Source of the DNA: a bacterium
Lineage (GTDB): Bacteria; Patescibacteriota; Saccharimonadia; Saccharimonadales; Saccharimonadaceae
Assembly: GCA_030429975.1 (NCBI GenBank)
Contig: JAUIGB010000001.1
Span: forward strand, 108,190-172,189
DNA length: 64,000 nucleotides
Direction of reading: 5' to 3'
Shown: piece after piece, positions 31,466 to 53,742 of the stretch
Position numbering within the stretch: position 1 is the stretch's first letter
Layout of the letters: each line of letters begins with the position of its first letter
Position numbers and translations under genes: made by a program
Notes under the pieces: generated by a model
Databases searched by the model: none
What the model was told of the DNA's origin: nothing
Seen by the model: the letters and a program-made list of their open reading frames with translations, nothing else

Positions 31466-31483
31466 TGGCGGAGGAGGGGAGAT
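31466..31483 (-). repeat. copy of the 3' end of tRNA-Ser(GCT)
   Basis: On the plus strand TGGCGGAGGAGGGGAGAT is identical to 31650-31667, i.e. the last 18 bases of the tRNA including CCA. It is followed by GCAGG, which also occurs in the tRNA a little further in. Confidence 0.8.
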
Positions 31484-31611
31484 GCAGGCTAAAGTCCTCC
31501 GCTCGTTCGCAAAAGAAAATGCTACGCGCTTTCTTTTACTTCTCTCGCTTCACCGAACTCCTGCTTGGCACCGTCACAGACGGCGCGCGGGAGTTCTAAT
31601 CTCGCCACAAC

Positions 31612-31649
31612 AAGAAGAAAAACGAGACGTAAAGCCTCGTTTCTCTTCT
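31612..31649 (-). terminator. intrinsic terminator of tRNA-Ser(GCT)
   Basis: Minus strand AAACGAG-N9-CTCGTTT followed by TTCTTCTT directly after the tRNA. Confidence 0.85.
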
Positions 31650-31742
31650 TGGCGGAGGAGGGGAGATTCGAACTCCCGCTGCAGGTTTCCCCACACTAAC
31701 GATTTAGCAAACCGTCCCCTTCAGCCACTTGGGTACTCCTCC
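31650..31742 (-). tRNA. tRNA-Ser (anticodon GCT)
   Basis: A 93-base type II tRNA: acceptor GGAGGAG/CTCCTCC, anticodon arm ACGGT-TTGCTAA-ATCGT, long variable arm, T arm CGGGAG-TTCGAAT-CTCCC, discriminator G and encoded CCA. It reads AGC/AGU. Confidence 0.96.
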
Positions 31743-31777
31743 GTGCTTGCGAGTCACATGTAACACGTTTCACGCAG

Positions 31778-31793
31778 CAGCCACTTGGGTACT
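31778..31793 (-). repeat. copy of a 5' segment of tRNA-Ser(GCT)
   Basis: CAGCCACTTGGGTACT is identical to 31722-31737 (tRNA positions ~6-21) and lies 36 bases upstream of the intact tRNA. Confidence 0.75.
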
Positions 31794-31812
31794 GCCTGTG
31801 TATTGTAACACT

Positions 31813-31902
31813 TGGCGGAGAGGGAGGGATTCGAACCCTCGAAGGCTTTTACACCTTGCCGGTTTTCAAGACCGGTACCATCAACCACTCGGTCACCTCT
31901 CC
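31813..31902 (-). tRNA. tRNA-Ser (anticodon TGA)
   Basis: A 90-base type II tRNA: acceptor GGAGAGG/CCTCTCC, anticodon arm CCGGT-CTTGAAA-ACCGG, long variable arm, T arm GAGGG-TTCGAAT-CCCTC, encoded CCA. It reads UCA and by wobble other UCN codons. ORF 31729..31920 is an artefact of it. Confidence 0.96.
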
Positions 31903-31934
31903 ATACTTGGATTATACTAGCAAATTAACCCCTG

Positions 31935-33299: not shown

Positions 33300-33713
33300 T
33301 TAGGCTCCGTCTGTAAAGCTCGATATGACAAAGTTGACGACAGCGTAGGCCAGAATAGCAACTACGACACCTACGATTGCATATAGTATCGTATTTTTTG
33401 CTTCCTGCACCTTGGTGGAGTCACCACCAGATACCACATAGCGTATACCACCGATAATCAACATAATGACGCTGATCGCACCGATGATAAATAGCATGAC
33501 GTTTGTGATGGTTCGGAAAATTCCACCCTGGCCACCTTCGCCAAATAGGCTGGCAGCATCACCTTGCTGATCTTTTCCTTGCGCTGCGTTTGCGCCATCC
33601 TGCAGACCCATATCAAAAACGGCGTGTGCTGGTACTGCCGCGAATACCCCAAAACCTAGCGCTAGCGCTGGCACCATCAAGGCAGACGACATTAATTTCT
33701 TTAGTTTATTCAT
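33300..33713 (-). CDS. VirB2-like pilin/two-helix membrane protein 1
   Basis: A 137-residue protein with a signal peptide cut near AVPAHA, a short Gln/Gly-rich loop, then two hydrophobic helices separated by the paralogue signature GGIRYVVSGGDSTKVQEAKNTILYAIVGVVVAILAYAVVNFV (split here in text only by position). This is the TrbC/VirB2-type topology: exported subunits that form the shaft or base channel of type IV secretion machines. AAAGG precedes the ATG by ten bases, and the 70-base gap upstream may carry its own promoter. Last gene of a seven-gene array; a strong terminator follows. Confidence 0.82.
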   Translation of the reverse strand: MNKLKKLMSSALMVPALALGFGVFAAVPAHAVFDMGLQDGANAAQGKDQQGDAASLFGEGGQGGIFRTITNVMLFIIGAISVIMLIIGGIRYVVSGGDSTKVQEAKNTILYAIVGVVVAILAYAVVNFVISSFTDGA

Positions 33714-33782
33714 TTTCTAATACCTTTCGCTTTGTATTAATCTGCTTATACTTATACCAAACTATCAGTAATTTGTTAAGGC

Positions 33783-34154
33783 TTAGCCATTTCCGCTAAA
33801 GGCGTCTAGAACGAAGTTTACTATTGCATATGCCAGTATAGCGACCACCAGGCCTACGACCGCGTACAGAACAATGTCTTTAGCCGCCTTAATGTTACTT
33901 GCATCGCCGTTGCTAGTGGCGTAACGTATACCGCCTATAATTATCATAATAACGGCTATCGCACCCAGAATAAATAGCATCATATTGACGATGGTCTTTA
34001 TTCCTTCCTGCAGACTAGTGTCGTTACCGTCATTTATATCATCCACTGATTGACGTATGTCATCAGCGGCGCTCGCATGTACCGTTGCGACTGGCGCGGC
34101 CATGACACCAAACATCATTGCCAGACTAGTGAGTGTTAAGGTTAGTTTTTTCAT
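33783..34154 (-). CDS. VirB2-like pilin/two-helix membrane protein 2
   Basis: A 123-residue paralogue of the neighbours. The signal peptide ends around ATVHASA, followed by an acidic stretch (DDIRQSVDDINDGND) and two helices around GGIRYATSNGDASNIKAAKD. The last third (YAVVGLVVAILAYAIVNFVL) is almost identical to gene 3. AGGAGGAG lies directly before the ATG. It could be a minor or alternative pilin subunit. Confidence 0.82.
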   Translation of the reverse strand: MKKLTLTLTSLAMMFGVMAAPVATVHASAADDIRQSVDDINDGNDTSLQEGIKTIVNMMLFILGAIAVIMIIIGGIRYATSNGDASNIKAAKDIVLYAVVGLVVAILAYAIVNFVLDAFSGNG

Positions 34155-34165
34155 ACTCCTCCTAT

Positions 34166-34555
34166 TTATGGTCCGCCCGTGAAAAAGTCCAAGACGAAGT
34201 TTACTATTGCATATGCCAATATGGCAACGACCAAACCTACGACTGAATATAGTATGGTATCCTTGGCAGCCTTGGTATTGTTTGAATCGCCGTTACTGGT
34301 GGTGTATCGTATGCCACCTATGATAATCATGATTACCGCGACAAAGCCTAATACCGCCAGCAGAAGGTTCACTACGTTTTTAATCAATGGTTCTAATTCT
34401 TCGTCCGAACTGTCACATAGTGGCGAACCGGCACCGGCACCCTGACAAGAGTTATCAACGATATTCAGGGCACTAACGTCAGATACTCCAACAAGCGGCA
34501 GGGCAACCATAAAGGCGACCAATAGCGCTACTAGTGCTGATTTGATGTATTTCAT
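34166..34555 (-). CDS. VirB2-like pilin/two-helix membrane protein 3
   Basis: A 129-residue paralogue with signal peptide (ALVALLVAFMVALPLVGVSDVSA), two cysteines in the loop (NSCQGAGAGSPLCDSS) that could form a disulfide, and the paired helices around GGIRYTTSNGDSNNTKAAKD. Its ATG overlaps the stop of gene 4 by one base (TAATG), so translation is coupled. Confidence 0.82.
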   Translation of the reverse strand: MKYIKSALVALLVAFMVALPLVGVSDVSALNIVDNSCQGAGAGSPLCDSSDEELEPLIKNVVNLLLAVLGFVAVIMIIIGGIRYTTSNGDSNNTKAAKDTILYSVVGLVVAILAYAIVNFVLDFFTGGP

Positions 34556-34899
34556 TATGGCGTTCCTCCTGTGCCACCAGCCTGTCCCGCCACCATCGCG
34601 ACAACGAAGTTTGTTATGGCCGCGGCTATTATTACTACTATTAGCCCCACGACGGCGTACATTATAGTGTTTTTCGCGGTTTGTATACCATTACTATCGC
34701 CATTGCTAGACGTATAGCGAATTCCGCCTACTATTATAACTATAATGGCAGCAAAGGCCGCTACGGCATATACGATATTCAATATATCCGCGACGACTTC
34801 ACCTGTAATTTGTGTCGGTGCCGTGGCGTCTAGGCCTATGTCGCTTGGATCAATAGTGATGTCTGTTTGCTGATTAGCCACGACCGCCGCCTCCGCCAA
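34555..34899 (-). CDS. VirB2-like protein 4, possibly frameshifted, no signal peptide
   Basis: The 114-residue frame opens at a TTG and has the paralogue core (GGIRYTSSNGDSNGIQTAKN) but lacks the signal peptide of the other members. The expected start, an ATG at 34927 overlapping the previous stop as TAATG, opens a 17-codon frame (MNFSNIGNFFGGGGGRG) that ends inside this gene. A one-base shift in the GGC/GGA run would join the two into a single protein of ~120 residues. It is therefore either a frameshift mutation, a sequencing error, a programmed shift or a member with a leader peptide. Confidence 0.65.
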   Translation of the reverse strand: MAEAAVVANQQTDITIDPSDIGLDATAPTQITGEVVADILNIVYAVAAFAAIIVIIVGGIRYTSSNGDSNGIQTAKNTIMYAVVGLIVVIIAAAITNFVVAMVAGQAGGTGGTP

Positions 34900-34926
34900 A
34901 GAAGTTTCCGATATTTGAAAAGTTCA

Positions 34927-35370
34927 TTATCCAAAGAATCCTGTAATAAAGTTGATTACTGCTACGGCCATTATGGAGATAACTAGGCCTATTATGGCGT
35001 TTGTTATTGTCTTGCGTGCCGCTTGAGTGCCGCTACTGTTGTCTCCAGAGGTTATGTATTTAAAACCGCCGTATATCACGAATGCCAGCGATACATAAGC
35101 CGCCGCCGTAAGTATCATCGTCGCGATATTTAGCGCTATTCTAGACAGCCAGCCACCTATGCCTTGACCTGTGTCCTGCGCTGAATTTCCTCCGTTAGTT
35201 GGAGGCATTATGTTTCCAGTCCCAGCCTCACACAGACCATCATACCAGCTAGGGAAAAACGGATTTTGATTAGGGCAGTCAGCCGCCTGTGCCGTGGACG
35301 ACGGACCAAACACCAGCCCCCCTACTACGAACGATGCGATCATTGTCATACTAATTATTAGGCGTTTCAT
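34927..35370 (-). CDS. VirB2-like pilin/two-helix membrane protein 5
   Basis: A 147-residue member with signal peptide ending near STAQAA. Two cysteines occur in ADCPNQNPFFPSWYDGLCEAG. The paired helices have a diverged signature GGFKYITSGDNSSGTQAARK. It starts six bases after the stop of gene 6 without a clear Shine-Dalgarno, so coupling is likely. Confidence 0.8.
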   Translation of the reverse strand: MKRLIISMTMIASFVVGGLVFGPSSTAQAADCPNQNPFFPSWYDGLCEAGTGNIMPPTNGGNSAQDTGQGIGGWLSRIALNIATMILTAAAYVSLAFVIYGGFKYITSGDNSSGTQAARKTITNAIIGLVISIMAVAVINFITGFFG

Positions 35371-35375
35371 TGCGC

Positions 35376-35876
35376 TTATTCTACCACGTCACCAGATGAG
35401 TTATCAATCGGTTGGCCCGTTTCTGGATCTATTTGTTCAGACTGTTCGGTTGGTTCCGGAGCGTTTATGACATTGCTAGGTATCAGCCATGCTATCAATG
35501 CTATCGTCAACACGTACATTAATATTCCAACTACGACGTTCCGGACTACTTTTATGGCCTGCGAGACTTTCTGTTTGTCGTCGCGCGCGCTGGCATACAG
35601 GATGCCCGCATAGGCGAGAGCGCCCATTGAAATCGCCCCTATCAAAGTCGTCATGACGATCAGAGCTATTTGTATCATCTGCCCGATAGCTTCTACGCCC
35701 GTCTCGCCCTCACACCCTACGAGGTGTGTCTTTGTGTCACCGCAACCACCACCAGTTCCGCCACTACTACCACCGCCAAACAGGTTCTGCAGAAAACCTT
35801 GAGCCTCTACCTGAGCAGGGTTGGCGATGACTAGTGCTAGTACGGCAACCGAGATTAGTATTATTTTCTTTATCAT
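35376..35876 (-). CDS. two-helix VirB2-like protein 6, diverged
   Basis: 166 residues from the preferred ATG at 35876, which overlaps the stop of gene 7 as ATGA and has AGGAGG 12 bases upstream; the track start 35906 is less likely. A signal peptide is followed by FLQNLFGGGSSGGTGGGCGD, with Cys residues in GCGDTKTHLVGC. Two long helices (LIVMTTLIGAISMGALAYAGILYASA and VVVGILMYVLTIALIAWLI) follow. It lacks the GGIRY signature but keeps the layout, so it is probably a structural partner of the pilin-like set. Confidence 0.75.
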   Translation of the reverse strand: MIKKIILISVAVLALVIANPAQVEAQGFLQNLFGGGSSGGTGGGCGDTKTHLVGCEGETGVEAIGQMIQIALIVMTTLIGAISMGALAYAGILYASARDDKQKVSQAIKVVRNVVVGILMYVLTIALIAWLIPSNVINAPEPTEQSEQIDPETGQPIDNSSGDVVE

Positions 35877-37111
35877 GGTCCGAATAACCCTCCTGGAACA
35901 AGCCAATTAACTAGTGCCAATAGTAGCACGTATAGTAATAACCCAATTACAATATTGCGGATCAACTCCTTTGATGCCGCGACGTTGCCCTCGTTATCCT
36001 CAGCCTTGGCGTACAATACCGACGCCCAGGCTAATCCCGCAACTGCCGCCGCACCTACTGCGAACGATAGGACAATAGCCGCGATCTTTAACAAATTCTG
36101 AAAGGCCAAGTTGCCCTCGTCTGTACCGCAGGCCAATAGGTTTACACGGGCCTTGCCACAACGTGAATCCGGAACAAAAGGCGAGTCACCATCAACCCCA
36201 TCTGCCGCATCTGGCTCGGAGCCGTCTAAGCATTTTGATGGATCGTTAGGGTCTATGCCGCCACGTCCCTCACAAGGATCTGGTGGGGGTGGTGGCGCAG
36301 GCGACTCACATTTAGGACTTCCGTTTTCGTTCCAGTTTCCTCCCCGACTTTCACATTCCGTTGGATCAGTTGTTCGATTGCGCATTTCGTCGTTCAAGCA
36401 TTGCTCGTACGCGGCTCTGTCCGCTAACAAATACTCCATATCGCCGATATCACCCCCGTCGTTATTCGGAGACTCAAAACCAGGTTGGCGTGATTGGTCG
36501 CTACAGTGCCTAACCACGTCGTTATATAAATTGTCACAACGCCGATTCGCTTCAGCGGCACTCTCTCCGTTTATTCTAGTACACGATTCACCTATGAGTT
36601 GTTCTACCGGCTTTTCTACACCCTCGACTATCGGTTGGTTTATATCCCTAATCGGATCGCATCCATGCTCATCAGTGTCCGAACCGTGATTACAACCAAT
36701 CGCAACCCTCTGAATCAGCTCGTTGTCTTCGCATCGCGAGACGTCCATTGAACGAGTGTTGCAGTACACCAGCGCATTCACACATTCACCACCCCTTGTA
36801 TTGATGCCGAACCAGGGTGACTCTACACACCCTCTAGCCCTGTCTACATAATTGTCATAACCTTGCGCGTTATCTCCACCGAAGTTAGCTTTTACATTGC
36901 TTGGTAGCCTGTTCCATGTTTCTTCTAGGCAGTTATCGTATCTAGCGCTATTCTTATCAGAAGTATAGTCATCTCCTATCTCGCTGGTACTACGACACCA
37001 GCCCTCATCGGTGACCTCAGCGCTAACTGATTGGGGCTGAACCACTAGTCCCACAATAAAGATGAGAGGCGCGAGGATAATTGATTTTATTATTGTTTGT
37101 TTTATGCTCAT
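35873..37111 (-). CDS. cysteine-rich secreted protein with VirB2-like C-terminus
   Basis: This 412-residue protein opens the array. It has a signal peptide (ending SVSA), a ~280-residue ectodomain with about 20 cysteines (e.g. CVESPWFGINTRGGEC, CEGRGGIDPNDPSKC) and a Pro-rich spacer. It ends in a two-helix unit (IAAIVLSFAVGAAAVAGLAWASVLYAKA and IVIGLLLYVLLLALVNWLV) that mirrors gene 6, including a preceding CGKARVNLLACG. A disulfide-bonded head on a pilin-type anchor would suit a tip or adhesin subunit; that is inference. A TATACA -10 lies nine bases before the ATG. Confidence 0.8.
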   Translation of the reverse strand: MSIKQTIIKSIILAPLIFIVGLVVQPQSVSAEVTDEGWCRSTSEIGDDYTSDKNSARYDNCLEETWNRLPSNVKANFGGDNAQGYDNYVDRARGCVESPWFGINTRGGECVNALVYCNTRSMDVSRCEDNELIQRVAIGCNHGSDTDEHGCDPIRDINQPIVEGVEKPVEQLIGESCTRINGESAAEANRRCDNLYNDVVRHCSDQSRQPGFESPNNDGGDIGDMEYLLADRAAYEQCLNDEMRNRTTDPTECESRGGNWNENGSPKCESPAPPPPPDPCEGRGGIDPNDPSKCLDGSEPDAADGVDGDSPFVPDSRCGKARVNLLACGTDEGNLAFQNLLKIAAIVLSFAVGAAAVAGLAWASVLYAKAEDNEGNVAASKELIRNIVIGLLLYVLLLALVNWLVPGGLFGP

Positions 37112-37172: not shown

Positions 37173-38174
37173 TTACTGTGTGTCAGCGCCTGTATAATCA
37201 TTTGGAAAACTTACTTTTATTGCTTTTGGATATGAGACGTTCGTTGTTTTGGTCGCTTTGTAGTTAGTGCTTTTCCATTGAATTTCCTCGACTATCCTTA
37301 CGGGCAAGTTTTTTTCTTGGTCTACCCAGATATCTACATTATTATCTAGCCCACTTATTGCGACAGGCCCCTTGATCCCGATAACTTCATTGAGCCTTTC
37401 GCTCAGTTTTGCCATGGCTTCACCATTGATTGCGACTTCGTACACTTTATAATCTTTGTTGTTCTCCGACTCCGTTCTTACATTCATGATGCTATAGACG
37501 TTATTACTGGATATATAATCTATGAGTTCTTTTCTGTCGTTGTCTTTAAAGTTACCAAGAATGATAGCCCCCATAGTGCGGGTAATATAGGTTCGCAAAA
37601 AGCCCGGGTCGTTTACTAGGCCGTATTCTGGTCCAGGAGCCTCAACCCATTCTTGCAGTGGAGTATCTTCAAAGCTGGATAGTGTCGACTCTTCTAGGCG
37701 CATAATTTGGCCTTTATCCTGCATAGAAACCACGCTGCCACTCGCAACAAGTTTATCGCTACTCTCGCTACTTTCTGTAATCTCGGTATCTTTTACCGAA
37801 TATTCGAAGTCGTATGCATTATTTGGTGCAGCGGGGTTACTAAAATCCGATTGCACCTTTAGCTGTACTTCGCGCTCACTAACATCTCCCGAATTCTCGA
37901 CTCTACTTTGATCTTTTATATCTCTTTCTACATAAGACACCTGCATTGCGTTATCTAACATCGCGTAGAAATTTCGCTCATTTGCTCCCAATAGCCACAA
38001 AGCTCCTGCCAAAGCCGCGAACACTACTAATAAAAACGTGAACAAGATGGTTATCGCTTTAGTAATCTTGTTCCTATTTTTTTGTGCTTGCTGTGGATCC
38101 GGTATTGGCTCCATGCCCAAATAATCCGGAATATTCGGGTTTGGATTGTTTGAACTTTGTTGCTCGGGTTGCAT
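37173..38174 (-). CDS. anchored extracytoplasmic protein, divergent from the VirB6 gene
   Basis: This 333-residue protein is not recognised. A Pro/Asn-rich cytoplasmic start is followed by one transmembrane helix (AITILFTFLLVVFAALAGALWLL, residues ~38-60) and a large external domain of beta character. The tail NVDIWVDQEKNLPVRIVEEIQW...YPKAIKVSFPNDYTG resembles LppX/LolA-like half-barrel proteins by pattern only. A TATAAT 10 bases before the ATG gives a very short leader. It lies between the VirB2-like array and the first VirB6 block, so it may belong to the apparatus. Confidence 0.7.
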   Translation of the reverse strand: MQPEQQSSNNPNPNIPDYLGMEPIPDPQQAQKNRNKITKAITILFTFLLVVFAALAGALWLLGANERNFYAMLDNAMQVSYVERDIKDQSRVENSGDVSEREVQLKVQSDFSNPAAPNNAYDFEYSVKDTEITESSESSDKLVASGSVVSMQDKGQIMRLEESTLSSFEDTPLQEWVEAPGPEYGLVNDPGFLRTYITRTMGAIILGNFKDNDRKELIDYISSNNVYSIMNVRTESENNKDYKVYEVAINGEAMAKLSERLNEVIGIKGPVAISGLDNNVDIWVDQEKNLPVRIVEEIQWKSTNYKATKTTNVSYPKAIKVSFPNDYTGADTQ

Positions 38175-38233: not shown

Positions 38234-40291
38234 ATGTTGCAGAGATGGTCTAAACACATGACCGGTGTTCTGCACGCACATCTTAGGCGTGGGGCATTGC
38301 TGTTTTTGGGCGTCGCTCTGGCAGTCGTAATGGTCGCGTCACCGATGATGGCACGCCCTGCGCACGCGCAGGGCATATCAGATCTTCTATCTCTAGGGGG
38401 GTCGTTCACGAACGGACTCTCTAGTTGTTCGATAGAGACCGTCGGCTGGGTCATTTGCCCGACTATGCGCTCTATCGCGAAGCTTGCTGACTATGGATTT
38501 GCTTATATAAACGACAACTTCCTGCGTATCGACTACGCGCTCGTGGACGATCAAAGCGGAACGTATACCGCATGGGAAATCATGCGTACCGTGGCCAACG
38601 CGGCGTTTGTTGTCGCTTTTATGGTTCTAGTCTATTCGCAGATATCCGGGCGAGGTAGTGGCGGTTATAGCATCAAACGATTGCTACCGCGATTGATTGT
38701 AGCGGCGATAGCCGTCAATATATCTTATTTCCTGTGCGTGATATTGATAGATATATCAAATATCATGGGTGACTCCATACTGTTCATAATGAATGATCAG
38801 GTGGCATCGCGTATAGGAAATTCCGTCATGCCTATTGGCGGTAACGCTGGCGGAGCATTCCAGGACGGAACATTAGCCACCTTAACCGCCGCCGTACTGC
38901 AGAAGACAGGCGTCGCGTGGGTGTTGCTGGCTCCGGTAGCGGCAGTTATCGTTTCAGTTGCGACTATATGTGCCGCTATGTTGATTCTGTTGATTATGCG
39001 GAAGACTATTGTAGCCCTACTAGTACTGGTTTCGCCACTCTTGTTCGTTGCCTACCTGCTACCCAACCTAGAAAGGTTCTTTACTGCTGGCGTTCGGCTA
39101 TTTATACAAATGATTATGCTGTACCCTATAATCGCCCTTCTTTTGGGTGCGGGTCAGATAGCCAGCACCACGATAGTTAGTGTTGGCTCAAATGATGCCA
39201 ATTATCGTGCGGCAAATGATTTCTACTTTTCTCGGACTGGCGGTAGCGGTAGCGCAATTACTGACGCGACCGCGGCAGCGGCAGCGGTGGTTCCATTGCT
39301 TGGTGTGTGGTTCCTTTTCAAGAACATGTCATCAGTCATGAATATGGCCAGCTCTAGACTTTCCGCCGCCGTAAAGGGCAGGAGGGGAGACGAGGACAAA
39401 GAGGCACGAGTTACTGGAAAAGCCACCGCCGGTGCACAAAATCGCAAGCAAATGTTCGGCGAAGCACCTAATCGTAGACAGGCATTCACTCGCGGTCGTA
39501 GACGTACATTGGGTGGTAGCACGCTGACCGGTAGCCTAGATGATCGCAGCAGACAACCTGCACCAATTGCAGGCCCGCAACCATCTTCATCCCTTGCCGA
39601 ACAAGGTGGTGCAAAACCAAAAGACGAGGCTGCGTTAGAGGAAGAAAAACGACGGCAAGATCAAGAAGCCGCCGCGCTAAACGGCAACCTGGAAGAAATG
39701 AATCTGGAAGGCCTACAGGCAGAGGGTGGATCCAAGGATGGTGACGAAAAAGAAAAGGTCATCGCCGGCAAGGACGAGAACGAACAGGTTACTGCCAAGG
39801 ATATATTTAGCCAAATGAACCGCAAACAGGGCACCGACTCAAAGGACAAAGAGCGCAAGCTCAGCGCCGGTCCACCGCCCGCAGGAACTAGTGGTGGTGG
39901 CGAATCAGGCGGTGGCGCAAGTCAACCTTCCGCTCCAACCAGCGCGTATAGGGCTCCCCAAATGGCACAAAGCTCGAATATTGTATCTGGCAGCTCCGGT
40001 CCTGTTCAGCCCGTAAAGGCAGTGGCCGTTCCTGTTCAGGTAGACTCATCGTCTTTACTGGGTAATAAAGATCGTGGCCCCGGCACAAACGGAGAATTTA
40101 CTCCGCCAATTAGTGGCACTCAGGAAAAGGCAAAAGCTCGTGCTAATAAATACATATATGACTCGGAAAAAGAGCTGGATGATGCTCGAAACCGTGACGA
40201 TATCTTAGGTAAAAAACATTCCAACCATGATGATGAACCTCACGATTTAGACGTTCGTGGCAACAAAGAAAATGACAAGGACAATGAATAA
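38234..40291 (+). CDS. VirB6/TrbL-like polytopic membrane protein, copy 1
   Basis: This is an inner-membrane channel component of type IV secretion-like systems. An N-terminal signal-like helix is followed by SCSIETVGWVICPTMRSI and six or so long helices, including FVVAFMVLVYSQISGRG and RLIVAAIAVNISYFLC. From ~residue 380 a 300-residue hydrophilic tail rich in Gly/Ser/Glu/Lys follows, with an R-rich patch (RRQAFTRGRRR). The membrane half is clearly paralogous to the protein at 49242 (same VGWxxCP, SGRG/TGRG and IAAIAVNISYF segments). AAAAGGG precedes the ATG. It overlaps the next gene by one base. Confidence 0.85.
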   Translation: MLQRWSKHMTGVLHAHLRRGALLFLGVALAVVMVASPMMARPAHAQGISDLLSLGGSFTNGLSSCSIETVGWVICPTMRSIAKLADYGFAYINDNFLRIDYALVDDQSGTYTAWEIMRTVANAAFVVAFMVLVYSQISGRGSGGYSIKRLLPRLIVAAIAVNISYFLCVILIDISNIMGDSILFIMNDQVASRIGNSVMPIGGNAGGAFQDGTLATLTAAVLQKTGVAWVLLAPVAAVIVSVATICAAMLILLIMRKTIVALLVLVSPLLFVAYLLPNLERFFTAGVRLFIQMIMLYPIIALLLGAGQIASTTIVSVGSNDANYRAANDFYFSRTGGSGSAITDATAAAAAVVPLLGVWFLFKNMSSVMNMASSRLSAAVKGRRGDEDKEARVTGKATAGAQNRKQMFGEAPNRRQAFTRGRRRTLGGSTLTGSLDDRSRQPAPIAGPQPSSSLAEQGGAKPKDEAALEEEKRRQDQEAAALNGNLEEMNLEGLQAEGGSKDGDEKEKVIAGKDENEQVTAKDIFSQMNRKQGTDSKDKERKLSAGPPPAGTSGGGESGGGASQPSAPTSAYRAPQMAQSSNIVSGSSGPVQPVKAVAVPVQVDSSSLLGNKDRGPGTNGEFTPPISGTQEKAKARANKYIYDSEKELDDARNRDDILGKKHSNHDDEPHDLDVRGNKENDKDNE

Positions 40292-49241: not shown

Positions 49242-51419
49242 ATGCTTTTGGCACAAAGACGGTTTCTTTTCATGTTTCTTGTCCCGTTCGTGGTGGCTAC
49301 TTTAGTTATTGGCGGGCTGTTTTTAAATAGTAGTACCGCAAACGCATACCCCCCGCCCTGTAACCCTGGCGATAACGAGGTTCAACAACCCGATGGTAGT
49401 GTCGACTGTCAACCCGCATCACCCACACCCCAGACCGGTAACAATCCCCAGACCGGTGGAGAGAACCCCGACGACGAAGAAGTATCCTGCGCCGTCGATA
49501 AAATCGGTTGGATCGTCTGTCCTGTCATAGAGAAGGCCGCATGGATAGGCGACCAAGCATTTGGCTTTTTGGCTGGCCAGTTTTTAGAGATTGAACCAGA
49601 ACTAGTAGCAACTTTTGACACCAGCAGCAATGATACCGGAACATATGCTACGTGGCAATTGGCGCGAAACATCGCCAATGTCATGTTCGTTATCGCGCTG
49701 TTGGTCATCATTATGTCGCAAGTAACCGGACGGGGTATTGACAACTACGGTATCAAAAAGCTCGTACCGCGACTGATAATAGCCGCTATCGCCGTGAATA
49801 TATCATACTTTATTTGTCAGGCAATGGTGGATTTGTCTAATATCCTAGGTTACGAGACAAAGAACTTCCTAGTAAATGCGGCCGCTTCCGTGTCTGATAG
49901 AACAGCCATGCCAGCCGCCAGTGATACTGGCATACAGACTGGCACGGGCGCATTGGCCGTGATAGCCGACATAGTGCTAGCAACCGTGGCAATTGTTTGG
50001 CTGGTCATGCCCTTGTTAGTATCGGCCATCGGCATAATCCTAGCGACTGTTCTGATAATCATTATTATCCTATTAATGCGAAAGGCCTTCATAATACTGC
50101 TAGTCGTAGTATCGCCAATCGCATTTGTCCTATATCTACTGCCAAACACAGAACAATACTTCCGTAAATGGTTGTCGATGTTTTGGAAATTGTTGATGGT
50201 GTTCCCGGTCGTGGGGCTCCTATTTGGTGCAGGCCAGTTAGCTAGTGCGGTCATCCTGGTAGCCGGTACAAACGGAGGCGGGACTTCTGCCACTGTTAGT
50301 TATTACGAAGACGGTGGCGACAAGTGTGTCACCTTGCCTCTCAGCAATCCAAACGCCAGACCGCAAGGACAAGACCAAGCCTTAGCTCAGCAAGGCAGCT
50401 GTGGAGATAGGTCAACACCCGTAATGTTGGGCTTGGTAGCCGCTCTCATCGCAGTCGCACCGATGCTAGCGGTATGGAGCGTACTAAAAGCAGCCCTACA
50501 GGGTGCTGGTCAGATTGGTGGCAAGATATCCGGCGCCGTCGAAACATATTCTGGCAAAGCAGGAACCAAAGCCCAAGAGCGCATGAACAGAAGTGCGATT
50601 GGTCGTGGAATGGAGACTAGGAAGGCTATTAAGAAGAACTATCAGGATCAGCAGTTCGCCGACAAGATGAGCAGGAAGGGTAGATTTGGTGGCACCTATA
50701 CACGCATAGCGTCACGCGGACTTCAGGGGAATGTTGGTCGAGTAGCAGGTGGGTCATGGGGTGCGCAGGACAGAAAACTGTCTGCTAACTTTGCTGGATC
50801 TGCAGAAAAGCTCCGCGATCAAGAAAAGGAAGAGCGAAAGGCATCCTTAAACCAGTTATTAAGAGACCGCCCTGGGGACCTACCAGAAAACGTATTGGCT
50901 CCAGAATTACGAAAAGCCCTAGCGTCTGGAGATGAAGTTGGCGCCTTAGCCGCACAAGAAATGCTCACAAGCGTAGCCGGTAAAGAAGGCGTGCATGAGA
51001 TGCGTAAAATGTTCAACGACATTGATAGCAAGAAGTTGAAGGTAGACGAGAAATCATTTTCTCATCTCATGCAACATATACTATCGCAAAGCAGTATCAA
51101 GAGCTCTGATGCCGACGTTTATAAATATGCTCAGGGCGGAAGCACAATGGCCGCTATTAGAAGTAATTCAGGAACATGGGATGGACTTACTGATGAGCAA
51201 GCGGCCAGCCAGACAAAGTTCGCTACGGGCGGAGATGGAGTAACGATGGGTGTTGCATCCGGATTTGTTGGTGCCATGACTAAGAAATCTAGCATCATCG
51301 GACCCGACGGTAAGGCTATCGAGGTCAATCGTGCAAACGTTGTATTGAACAACGCTACGGCGCAAAAGGCGCTAAAGGACAAGACTCGAGAAATTGTAGA
51401 GAAATCTGTAAGCAAGTAG
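49242..51419 (+). CDS. VirB6/TrbL-like polytopic membrane protein, copy 2
   Basis: 725 residues. A signal-like first helix and a Pro/Asn-rich loop precede SCAVDKIGWIVCPVIEKAAW, then six or more helices including FVIALLVIIMSQVTGRG, RLIIAAIAVNISYFICQ and VSAIGIILATVLIIIIILL. From ~residue 415 a long cytoplasmic or luminal tail is Lys/Arg/Gln-rich and helical. The membrane half aligns segment by segment with the protein at 38234, so the two arose by duplication. It opens the block leading to the VirB4 genes. The translation start lacks a good Shine-Dalgarno. Confidence 0.86.
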   Translation: MLLAQRRFLFMFLVPFVVATLVIGGLFLNSSTANAYPPPCNPGDNEVQQPDGSVDCQPASPTPQTGNNPQTGGENPDDEEVSCAVDKIGWIVCPVIEKAAWIGDQAFGFLAGQFLEIEPELVATFDTSSNDTGTYATWQLARNIANVMFVIALLVIIMSQVTGRGIDNYGIKKLVPRLIIAAIAVNISYFICQAMVDLSNILGYETKNFLVNAAASVSDRTAMPAASDTGIQTGTGALAVIADIVLATVAIVWLVMPLLVSAIGIILATVLIIIIILLMRKAFIILLVVVSPIAFVLYLLPNTEQYFRKWLSMFWKLLMVFPVVGLLFGAGQLASAVILVAGTNGGGTSATVSYYEDGGDKCVTLPLSNPNARPQGQDQALAQQGSCGDRSTPVMLGLVAALIAVAPMLAVWSVLKAALQGAGQIGGKISGAVETYSGKAGTKAQERMNRSAIGRGMETRKAIKKNYQDQQFADKMSRKGRFGGTYTRIASRGLQGNVGRVAGGSWGAQDRKLSANFAGSAEKLRDQEKEERKASLNQLLRDRPGDLPENVLAPELRKALASGDEVGALAAQEMLTSVAGKEGVHEMRKMFNDIDSKKLKVDEKSFSHLMQHILSQSSIKSSDADVYKYAQGGSTMAAIRSNSGTWDGLTDEQAASQTKFATGGDGVTMGVASGFVGAMTKKSSIIGPDGKAIEVNRANVVLNNATAQKALKDKTREIVEKSVSK

Positions 51420-52734: not shown

Positions 52735-53742
52735 ATGGCGGTATACAAAGTACCTCAAGACGTCGAGGCGGACGACAAGCTAATCGGTCCGTTTAGTTTT
52801 CGTCAATTTATTTACCTTATTATCGTCGCTATTTCCTTGGCGGGCGCATGGGGTCTGGGTCAACTTTTCCCCGTTTTGGCAATCCTGCCTCTGCCGGTAA
52901 TTCTATTTTTTGGTACTCTAGCGCTACCACTGCGCAAAGATCAGCCCATGGAGGCTTATCTGTCCGCAGTGGTTTCTTTTTACTTCCTAAAATCCCATAA
53001 AAGGCTTTGGTTGCCAGATGGAATTGATTCATTCGTGACTATCATTCCGCCAAAAAACTCAGAGAGAATTTTGACGAAACAATTCGACGACGCCGAAGCA
53101 AACAAGCGTTTAGACTATTTGACCAGCCTGGTCGATTCACATGGCTGGGCTATTAGAGGTGTTCAGGCTGCCGACACATCCGTAAGCAATGACCTGTATT
53201 ATGAGTCGCAACAAGCAGCCGACGTGATGGATAATTCTAGCCCATCGGCCCAGGCTATGACCGAGAGGTTACAAAACGCCGCCACTTCTAGGCGCGAAAG
53301 TGCCGTGAGCAACATGAAAACCTCGACTAAAACACCCCCTGCCCAGGCTTCTGACCAGGCGCAAAAAACAACTACAAACACCGACGATACCGCAACTAGC
53401 GACCCCGGTTCGGTCGTTCCATCTGATGATGAGTTGAGAAAGAAAGAGGAGGCCGCGGTAAAGAAACATGCCGAGAAGCAAGGTAGGGACGTAGCCGCCT
53501 ACGCCGCCGCGCTAGCCGAAGAGGCTGCCGAAAACCGTGGAAAACCTGTGCAAAAACCGAGTACAAACACTAGCGCTTCTACCCCTGATACTGATACAAT
53601 GGAACTGACGAATAAGCAGGCGAAGGACTTGTCTAGTCAAGAGGGCGTGACAATAGCGACCATTGCGCATCAGGCAAAGCGCGTTGCTACGGACAACAAG
53701 TCACTAAAAGAAGGCGAGGAAGTGACGATATCACTTCATTAA
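52735..53742 (+). CDS. PrgI-family membrane protein
   Basis: PrgI proteins are small VirB3-like membrane components found next to VirB4 in Gram-positive conjugation systems. The N-terminal ~110 residues fit: YKVPQDVEADDKLIGPFSFRQ, two helices (FIYLIIVAISLAGAWGLGQL and LAILPLPVILFFGTLALPL) and PMEAYLSAVVSFYFLKSHKRLW. The remaining ~220 residues are a Ser/Thr/Ala/Glu-rich, probably disordered tail that is not part of the family core. It is first in the operon with VirB4. Confidence 0.87.
   Translation: MAVYKVPQDVEADDKLIGPFSFRQFIYLIIVAISLAGAWGLGQLFPVLAILPLPVILFFGTLALPLRKDQPMEAYLSAVVSFYFLKSHKRLWLPDGIDSFVTIIPPKNSERILTKQFDDAEANKRLDYLTSLVDSHGWAIRGVQAADTSVSNDLYYESQQAADVMDNSSPSAQAMTERLQNAATSRRESAVSNMKTSTKTPPAQASDQAQKTTTNTDDTATSDPGSVVPSDDELRKKEEAAVKKHAEKQGRDVAAYAAALAEEAAENRGKPVQKPSTNTSASTPDTDTMELTNKQAKDLSSQEGVTIATIAHQAKRVATDNKSLKEGEEVTISLH

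What the first reader, a model, noticed from the sequence alone, without database searches (positions are those of the whole stretch)
33300..37111. Seven-gene array of small VirB2-like two-helix proteins
Five proteins share a GG(I/F)(R/K)Y...S.GD motif and a near-identical last helix; two more (176- and 412-residue ORFs) share a second, diverged two-helix unit. Known VirB2/TrbC systems usually carry one pilin gene. Seven adjacent versions with different exposed loops (acidic, Gln-rich, disulfide-forming, or a 280-residue Cys-rich head) suggest a heteropolymeric filament or swappable subunits.
Basis: partly seen in the sequence, partly recalled or inferred. Interest (0 to 1): 0.72.

Follow-up and report, generated by a model that had tools for sequence, protein, structure and literature searches.

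The report
Saccharibacterial seven-gene T4SS pilin array
Seven neighbouring genes in an ultra-small epibiotic bacterium encode related pilin-like subunits of its type IV secretion system; such arrays were already known, but comparison across related species shows that each copy keeps its own place and features, with one (probably the main subunit) under its own promoter, so they look like fixed parts of one mixed filament or conduit rather than interchangeable spares.

Summary
In detail: seven intact minus-strand ORFs (33300-37111) encode homologous two-helix pilin-like proteins. Five pass Pfam T4SS_pilin (PF18895). The 176- and 412-residue ones are remote members of the same family. The window is saccharibacterial and lies in its T4SS locus (PrgI/VirB3, VirB4, amidase, lysozyme). 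The kind is not new: arrays of 2-11 VirB2-like pilins in Patescibacteria, and an essential one in Southlakia epibionticum, are published. New here, from 80 related loci: (1) the paralogues are ancient, and the order p6/7-p5-p4-p3-p2-p1 is kept; array position needs 87 changes on the tree, against 202 for within-locus shuffles. (2) The last gene, p1, is the most conserved and carries its own promoter (TTAACA-N14-TGN-TATAA) in 36 of 52 arrays, against at most 3 of 52 at other junctions. (3) p4 lacks a signal peptide class-wide, and in 12 loci it is fused to p5. (4) The 412-residue protein is a duplicate, limited to near relatives, with a Cys-rich head of unknown fold. Best reading: a heteromeric T4SS pilus or conduit with p1 as major pilin, p5:p4 as a 1:1 pair, and p7 as an exposed, fast-evolving subunit. 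'Swappable subunits' is disfavoured. Nothing here shows that a filament is actually built.

The parts
33300..33713 (-). p1: last pilin of the array (137 aa), signal peptide + two-helix hairpin, no Cys; proposed major pilin
   Evidence: PF18895 46 bits; 94-98% hairpin identity to L003/L005; own promoter
33752..33779 (-). Promoter-like element upstream of p1: TTAACA-N14-TGG-TATAA, extended -10
   Evidence: score 13/13; 36 of 52 arrays reach >=11 at this junction; only exact match in the 1.02-Mb genome
33257..33285 (-). Intrinsic-terminator-like hairpin (11-bp stem, T tail) just after p1
33783..34154 (-). p2 pilin (123 aa)
   Evidence: PF18895 45.8 bits
34166..34555 (-). p3 pilin (129 aa), two Cys before the first helix; AF2 helical hairpin 54-86/91-125
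   Evidence: PF18895 54.3 bits; model mean pLDDT 80
34555..34899 (-). p4 pilin (114 aa as called, TTG start), no signal peptide
   Evidence: PF18895 37.2 bits; 3 of 34 class members have a signal-like segment; start codon uncertain
34927..35370 (-). p5 pilin (147 aa), two Cys in the exposed segment
   Evidence: PF18895 27.1 bits; fused to p4 in 12 relatives
35376..35906 (-). p6 (176 aa, TTG start): diverged pilin with Cys pair before helix 1 and acidic C-terminal tail
   Evidence: NF045849 33.1 bits, below cut-off; class-6 profile 74 bits
35873..37111 (-). p7 (412 aa): same class as p6, with ~280-residue Cys-rich extracellular head (18 Cys in all)
   Evidence: found only in near relatives
37173..38174 (-). 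333-aa one-helix membrane protein upstream on the same strand, probably co-transcribed (inference)
   Evidence: no confident family match
38234..40291 (+). Divergent polytopic membrane protein, VirB6-like by position and helix pattern (inference)
   Evidence: 7 hydrophobic helices; no Pfam or NCBIfam match
52735..53742 (+). PrgI/VirB3-like protein
   Evidence: PF12666 45.7 bits
54652..56577 (+). VirB4-like ATPase
   Evidence: PF19044 TraG P-loop 99.1 bits
56584..59715 (+). Large protein with Amidase_2 domain (wall hydrolase of the T4SS locus)
   Evidence: PF01510 46.6 bits
59705..60979 (+). Phage_lysozyme2 protein
   Evidence: PF18013 80.4 bits

Best explanation
The array encodes the pilin set of the saccharibacterial T4SS, built as a heteromeric assembly with fixed roles. 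p1 is the major subunit, made from its own promoter and ended by a terminator. p2-p7 are minor subunits made from closely packed, often overlapping genes. p5 and p4 act as a 1:1 pair. p7, a duplicate of the p6-type subunit, displays a disulfide-rich head outside the cell, perhaps at the tip or cap where VirB5 would sit in other systems. Shown computationally: homology, positional orthology and order, the p1 promoter signature, p5-p4 fusions, the p4 lack of signal peptide, and restriction of the p7 head to near relatives. Inferred: that one structure contains all subunits, that p1 is most abundant, that the structure reaches the host cell, and the p7 role.
For: Order p6/7-p5-p4-p3-p2-p1 recurs in the related loci. 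Tree of 293 hairpins: array position needs 87 changes, within-locus shuffles mean 202, lowest 189. The clade with p4 holds members from 41 of 42 loci, that with p5 from 40. p1 promoter: 36/52 arrays at score >=11, other junctions 0-3 of 52 and shuffled p1 upstream regions 3/52. Median p2-p1 spacer 69 nt; the junctions upstream of p3 have medians from 0 to -4. Position 1 is the most conserved hairpin across six-gene arrays (0.675, falling to about 0.43 at positions 5 and 6). Fusion: first domain is class 5 in 12/12, second is class 4 in 11/12, with 5 fused/separate changes on the tree, at least 2 forced by well-supported branches. 59 of 61 family genomes carry the family, typically about 7 matches. 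The S. epibionticum pilins are essential (PMC10633639).
Against: No filament, expression or stoichiometry data for these genes. The promoter score was designed after seeing the motif in eight arrays (28 of the other 44 still reach 11). p1 conservation might mean a base or channel role rather than the major subunit. p2 and p3 are poorly separated by class profiles and on the tree. Foldseek gave no significant solved pilin match for the hairpin, and no match for p7. Other T4SSs of Gram-positive bacteria lack pili (PMC12857230).
Confidence: 0.6

Rival explanations
1. The copies are a repertoire for variation: alternative pilins exchanged or varied to fit different host strains or escape recognition, as proposed for Bartonella Trw pilins and suggested for Patescibacteria in PMC12102498.
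For: Low identity among paralogues within arrays (0.41 of hairpin positions); exposed segments diverge faster than hairpins in all seven; the p7 head is only 24-31% identical between near relatives.
Against: Positions are orthologous across the class and order is fixed; p5-p4 fusions; dN/dS 0.07-0.54 in exposed segments where computable, never above 1 (many comparisons saturated).
Confidence: 0.15
2. The proteins form a short membrane- or wall-embedded conduit of the T4SS, not an extended pilus; subunits occupy different rings or layers.
For: Fixed one-each gene set and a fused pair suit a defined complex; relatives in Gram-positive T4SSs lack pili (PMC12857230); no filament evidence here.
Against: The p1 own-promoter pattern suggests that one subunit is needed in excess, as in a polymer; family resemblance to TrbC/VirB2 pilins (below cut-off).
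Confidence: 0.25
3. Redundant or decaying duplicates, only one of which matters.
For: p1 is far more conserved than the rest.
Against: All seven intact, strongly conserved hairpins, same set in most relatives; a pilin series is essential in S. epibionticum (PMC10633639).
Confidence: 0.03

Closest known systems
VirB2-like pilin arrays of Patescibacteria (PMC12102498; Southlakia epibionticum SEML1_0006-0019, PMC10633639)
   Same: Same class, same T4SS locus type, same protein family (PF18895), several divergent pilins side by side (6 in S. epibionticum per PMC12857230)
   Different: The window has 7, with a p6/p7 duplication and a ~280-residue Cys-rich head. Positional orthology, the p1 promoter, the p5-p4 fusion and the signal-less p4 are not reported in the passages of those papers that I read.
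VirB2/TrbC conjugative pilins (PF04956)
   Same: Small two-helix hairpin, mostly with signal peptide
   Different: Matches stay below the Pfam cut-off (22.7 and 24.5 bits vs 27.9); several genes per system instead of one
Mbov_0395 / ICE_MMCAP2_0565 pilin-like conjugal transfer proteins (NF045849)
   Same: Hairpin region matches in all seven
   Different: Only p3 passes the cut-off; the model (80 positions) covers no long exposed head
Bartonella Trw T4SS with multiple sequence-variable VirB2 and VirB5 homologues
   Same: Several sequence-divergent pilin genes in one T4SS (as described in PMC12857230)
   Different: There the copies are thought to serve antigenic variation; here positions are ancient, orthologous and in one case fused

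Membership tests
T4SS_pilin (PF18895) | Profile score over the curated cut-off of 26.6 bits | tested here: met
   p1-p5 27.1-54.3 bits. p7 19.6 bits and p6 no match: not met for these two
VirB2/TrbC (PF04956) | Profile score over the curated cut-off of 27.9 bits | tested here: not met
   best 24.5 bits (p3), 22.7 (p2)
VirB2/TrbC (PF04956) | Assembles into an extracellular helical pilus | not testable with these tools
   needs imaging
Patescibacteria VirB2 array | Two or more adjacent VirB2-like pilin genes near virB4 | tested here: met
   seven genes; VirB4 17.5 kb away in the same locus
Patescibacteria VirB2 array | Member of the saccharibacterial T4SS locus by synteny | tested here: met
   array - HSP20 - ComFC-like phosphoribosyltransferase also in oral taxon 348 (L033)
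Variable pilin repertoire (Bartonella Trw type) | Copies interchangeable or under diversifying selection | tested here: inconclusive
   positional orthology speaks against; dN/dS below 1 but often saturated, no strain-level data

The most novel reading that the evidence does not exclude
Saccharibacteria build a true heteropolymeric T4SS pilus of about six non-interchangeable pilins, with a promoter-marked major subunit, an obligate p5:p4 heterodimer whose second member enters the membrane without a signal peptide, and in this lineage a disulfide-rich headed pilin replacing the VirB5 tip.
Probability: 0.3. Interest if true: 0.8.

Novelty: new variant of a known kind. Interest (0 to 1): 0.5.

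Why it matters
The saccharibacterial T4SS is essential for epibiotic growth in the one strain tested, and its pilins are an unexplained departure from other Gram-positive T4SSs. The comparison turns 'many pilins, perhaps for host range' into a specific, testable layout: which subunit should be abundant, which two should pair, which lacks a signal peptide, and which carries the exposed lineage-specific head.

Tried and rejected
dnaA between array and the downstream convergent pilin was guessed from the 1.3-2 kb gap, but no dnaA was found in those loci; in L033 that gap holds HSP20 and a ComF-like gene. Foldseek against PDB for the p3 hairpin and for p7: no significant match; profile searches of PDB sequences: none. 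NG86 dN/dS is saturated for many comparisons, so diversifying selection is not excluded at strain level. The weak C18 hit to PF18895 (E 0.005) looks like chance and was not counted.

Full report
WHAT IS THERE. Seven minus-strand ORFs lie head to tail between 37111 and 33300. I call them p7 (first transcribed, 412 aa) to p1 (last, 137 aa). All pairs are similar beyond 200 shuffles. p1-p5 pass Pfam T4SS_pilin; p7 is below its cut-off, and p6 is caught only by NCBIfam NF045849 below its cut-off. Profiles of array position trained on other loci put both p6 and p7 in the same class, 'position 6' (74 and 87 bits, next class about 30). Six of the proteins show three hydrophobic helices, the first fitting a signal peptide; p4 shows only two.

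WHERE IT IS. The genome is 1.02 Mb in 38 contigs, 99% complete, and its nearest relatives are Saccharibacteria. The window also holds PrgI/VirB3 (52735), a VirB4-type ATPase (54652), an amidase (56584) and a lysozyme (59705), a T4SS locus. dnaA lies just beyond the right end of the window. The flank HSP20 - ComF-like gene after p1 is the same in oral taxon 348.

WHAT IS KNOWN. PMC12102498 reports 441 VirB2 arrays of 2-11 pilins in 383 Patescibacteria assemblies, especially Microgenomatia and Saccharimonadia, on average 25% identical within an array, and suggests adaptation to different host strains. PMC10633639 found a series of predicted pilins essential in S. epibionticum, with no coupling protein or relaxase recognised. 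The review PMC12857230 counts six there. The array as such is therefore not new.

ARE THE COPIES INTERCHANGEABLE? In 80 loci plus the window I found 486 pilin ORFs; 61 arrays are complete, most often of 6 genes. Best-hit labels run in the same order, p6/7-p5-p4-p3-p2-p1, in most loci. On a tree of 293 hairpins, array position needs 87 changes; shuffling labels within loci gives a mean of 202 and a minimum of 189. Clades holding p4 and p5 take in 41 and 40 of the 42 loci (support 85 and 44). p2 and p3 separate less cleanly. In the family, 59 of 61 genomes carry PF18895, commonly six to nine copies. This is the pattern of subunits with separate, old roles.

p1 IS SPECIAL. Across six-gene arrays its hairpin is the most conserved (0.675 identity, against 0.629, 0.499, 0.464, 0.427 and 0.432 for positions 2-6). 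Against L003 and L005 its hairpin is 94-98% and its exposed part 75-82% identical, while the p7 head is 29-31%. The p2-p1 spacer has a median of 69 nt, whereas the junctions upstream of p3 are at or near overlap. That spacer holds TTAACA-N14-TGN-TATAA, an extended -10 promoter: 36 of 52 arrays score at least 11 of 13, against 0-3 of 52 before every other array gene and 3 of 52 shuffled p1 spacers. I designed the score after seeing the motif in eight arrays; of the other 44, 28 still reach 11. Upstream regions of the other genes are mostly coding, so they are an imperfect control; the shuffles share base composition only. In this genome the exact pattern occurs once, before p1; near matches elsewhere, mostly TTGACA, look like ordinary promoters. 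A terminator-like hairpin follows p1. Inference: p1 is made in excess, as a major pilin would be.

p5 AND p4. The p4 class lacks a signal-like segment (3 of 34, against 46 of 48 for p5). In 12 loci one ORF holds two pilin hairpins; the first is class 5 in all 12, the second class 4 in 11. Fused and separate forms need 5 changes on the tree, at least 2 forced by starred branches. If p5 keeps its C-terminus outside, as a signal peptide plus two helices implies, the fusion places the N-terminus of p4 outside as well; the acidic stretch before helix 1 and the basic loop fit. A fusion implies 1:1 stoichiometry and proximity, by inference.

p7. The long Cys-rich head with the p7-type hairpin occurs in the window and nine relatives; four Cys of the head proper and the C-x9-C pair before helix 1 align in all ten, while the head is otherwise divergent. 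In most other arrays a single protein, typically around 150 residues, holds this class. AlphaFold2 gave a mean pLDDT of 62.8, with a mostly helical head at about 70-80 and no PDB match. A tip or host-contact role is a guess.

SELECTION. Where dS is computable, dN/dS is 0.07-0.54 in the exposed segments and 0.01-0.18 in hairpins; there is no sign of diversifying selection, but saturation limits the test.

VERDICT.

Noticed in passing
L108:1955-3391 (G023 contig C2): 478-aa protein in the window's sister genome joins a pilin-like hairpin to a polytopic VirB6-like membrane region, beside a lone pilin gene: seemingly a second, different T4SS.
   Followed up: partly
L044:7808-9424 and L071:4733-6313: Pilin hairpins carrying about 400 further residues after the hairpin (538 and 526 aa), a different kind of enlarged pilin from p7.
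   Followed up: no
35 related loci, e.g. L033:12442-12894: A lone p1-like pilin on the opposite strand about 1.2-4.8 kb downstream of the array; in this genome the p1-like extra copy is on contig C21 instead (L085:1477-1926).
   Followed up: partly
31482-31920: Short ORFs with 'RGRDSNPRR...HQPLGH' type peptides, which are typical of mis-translated tRNA genes; tRNAs probably lie here (recalled, not run).
   Followed up: no
L009 (SEAL01000040.1) and L030 (JAIROX010000001.1): Records titled Chloroflexi and Nomurabacteria carry saccharibacterial-type arrays; L009 groups closely with the window's relatives, so mislabelling or bin contamination is likely.
   Followed up: no
49242-51419: 725-aa protein with about eight hydrophobic helices in the T4SS locus and no Pfam match: possible second VirB6-like protein.
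   Followed up: no
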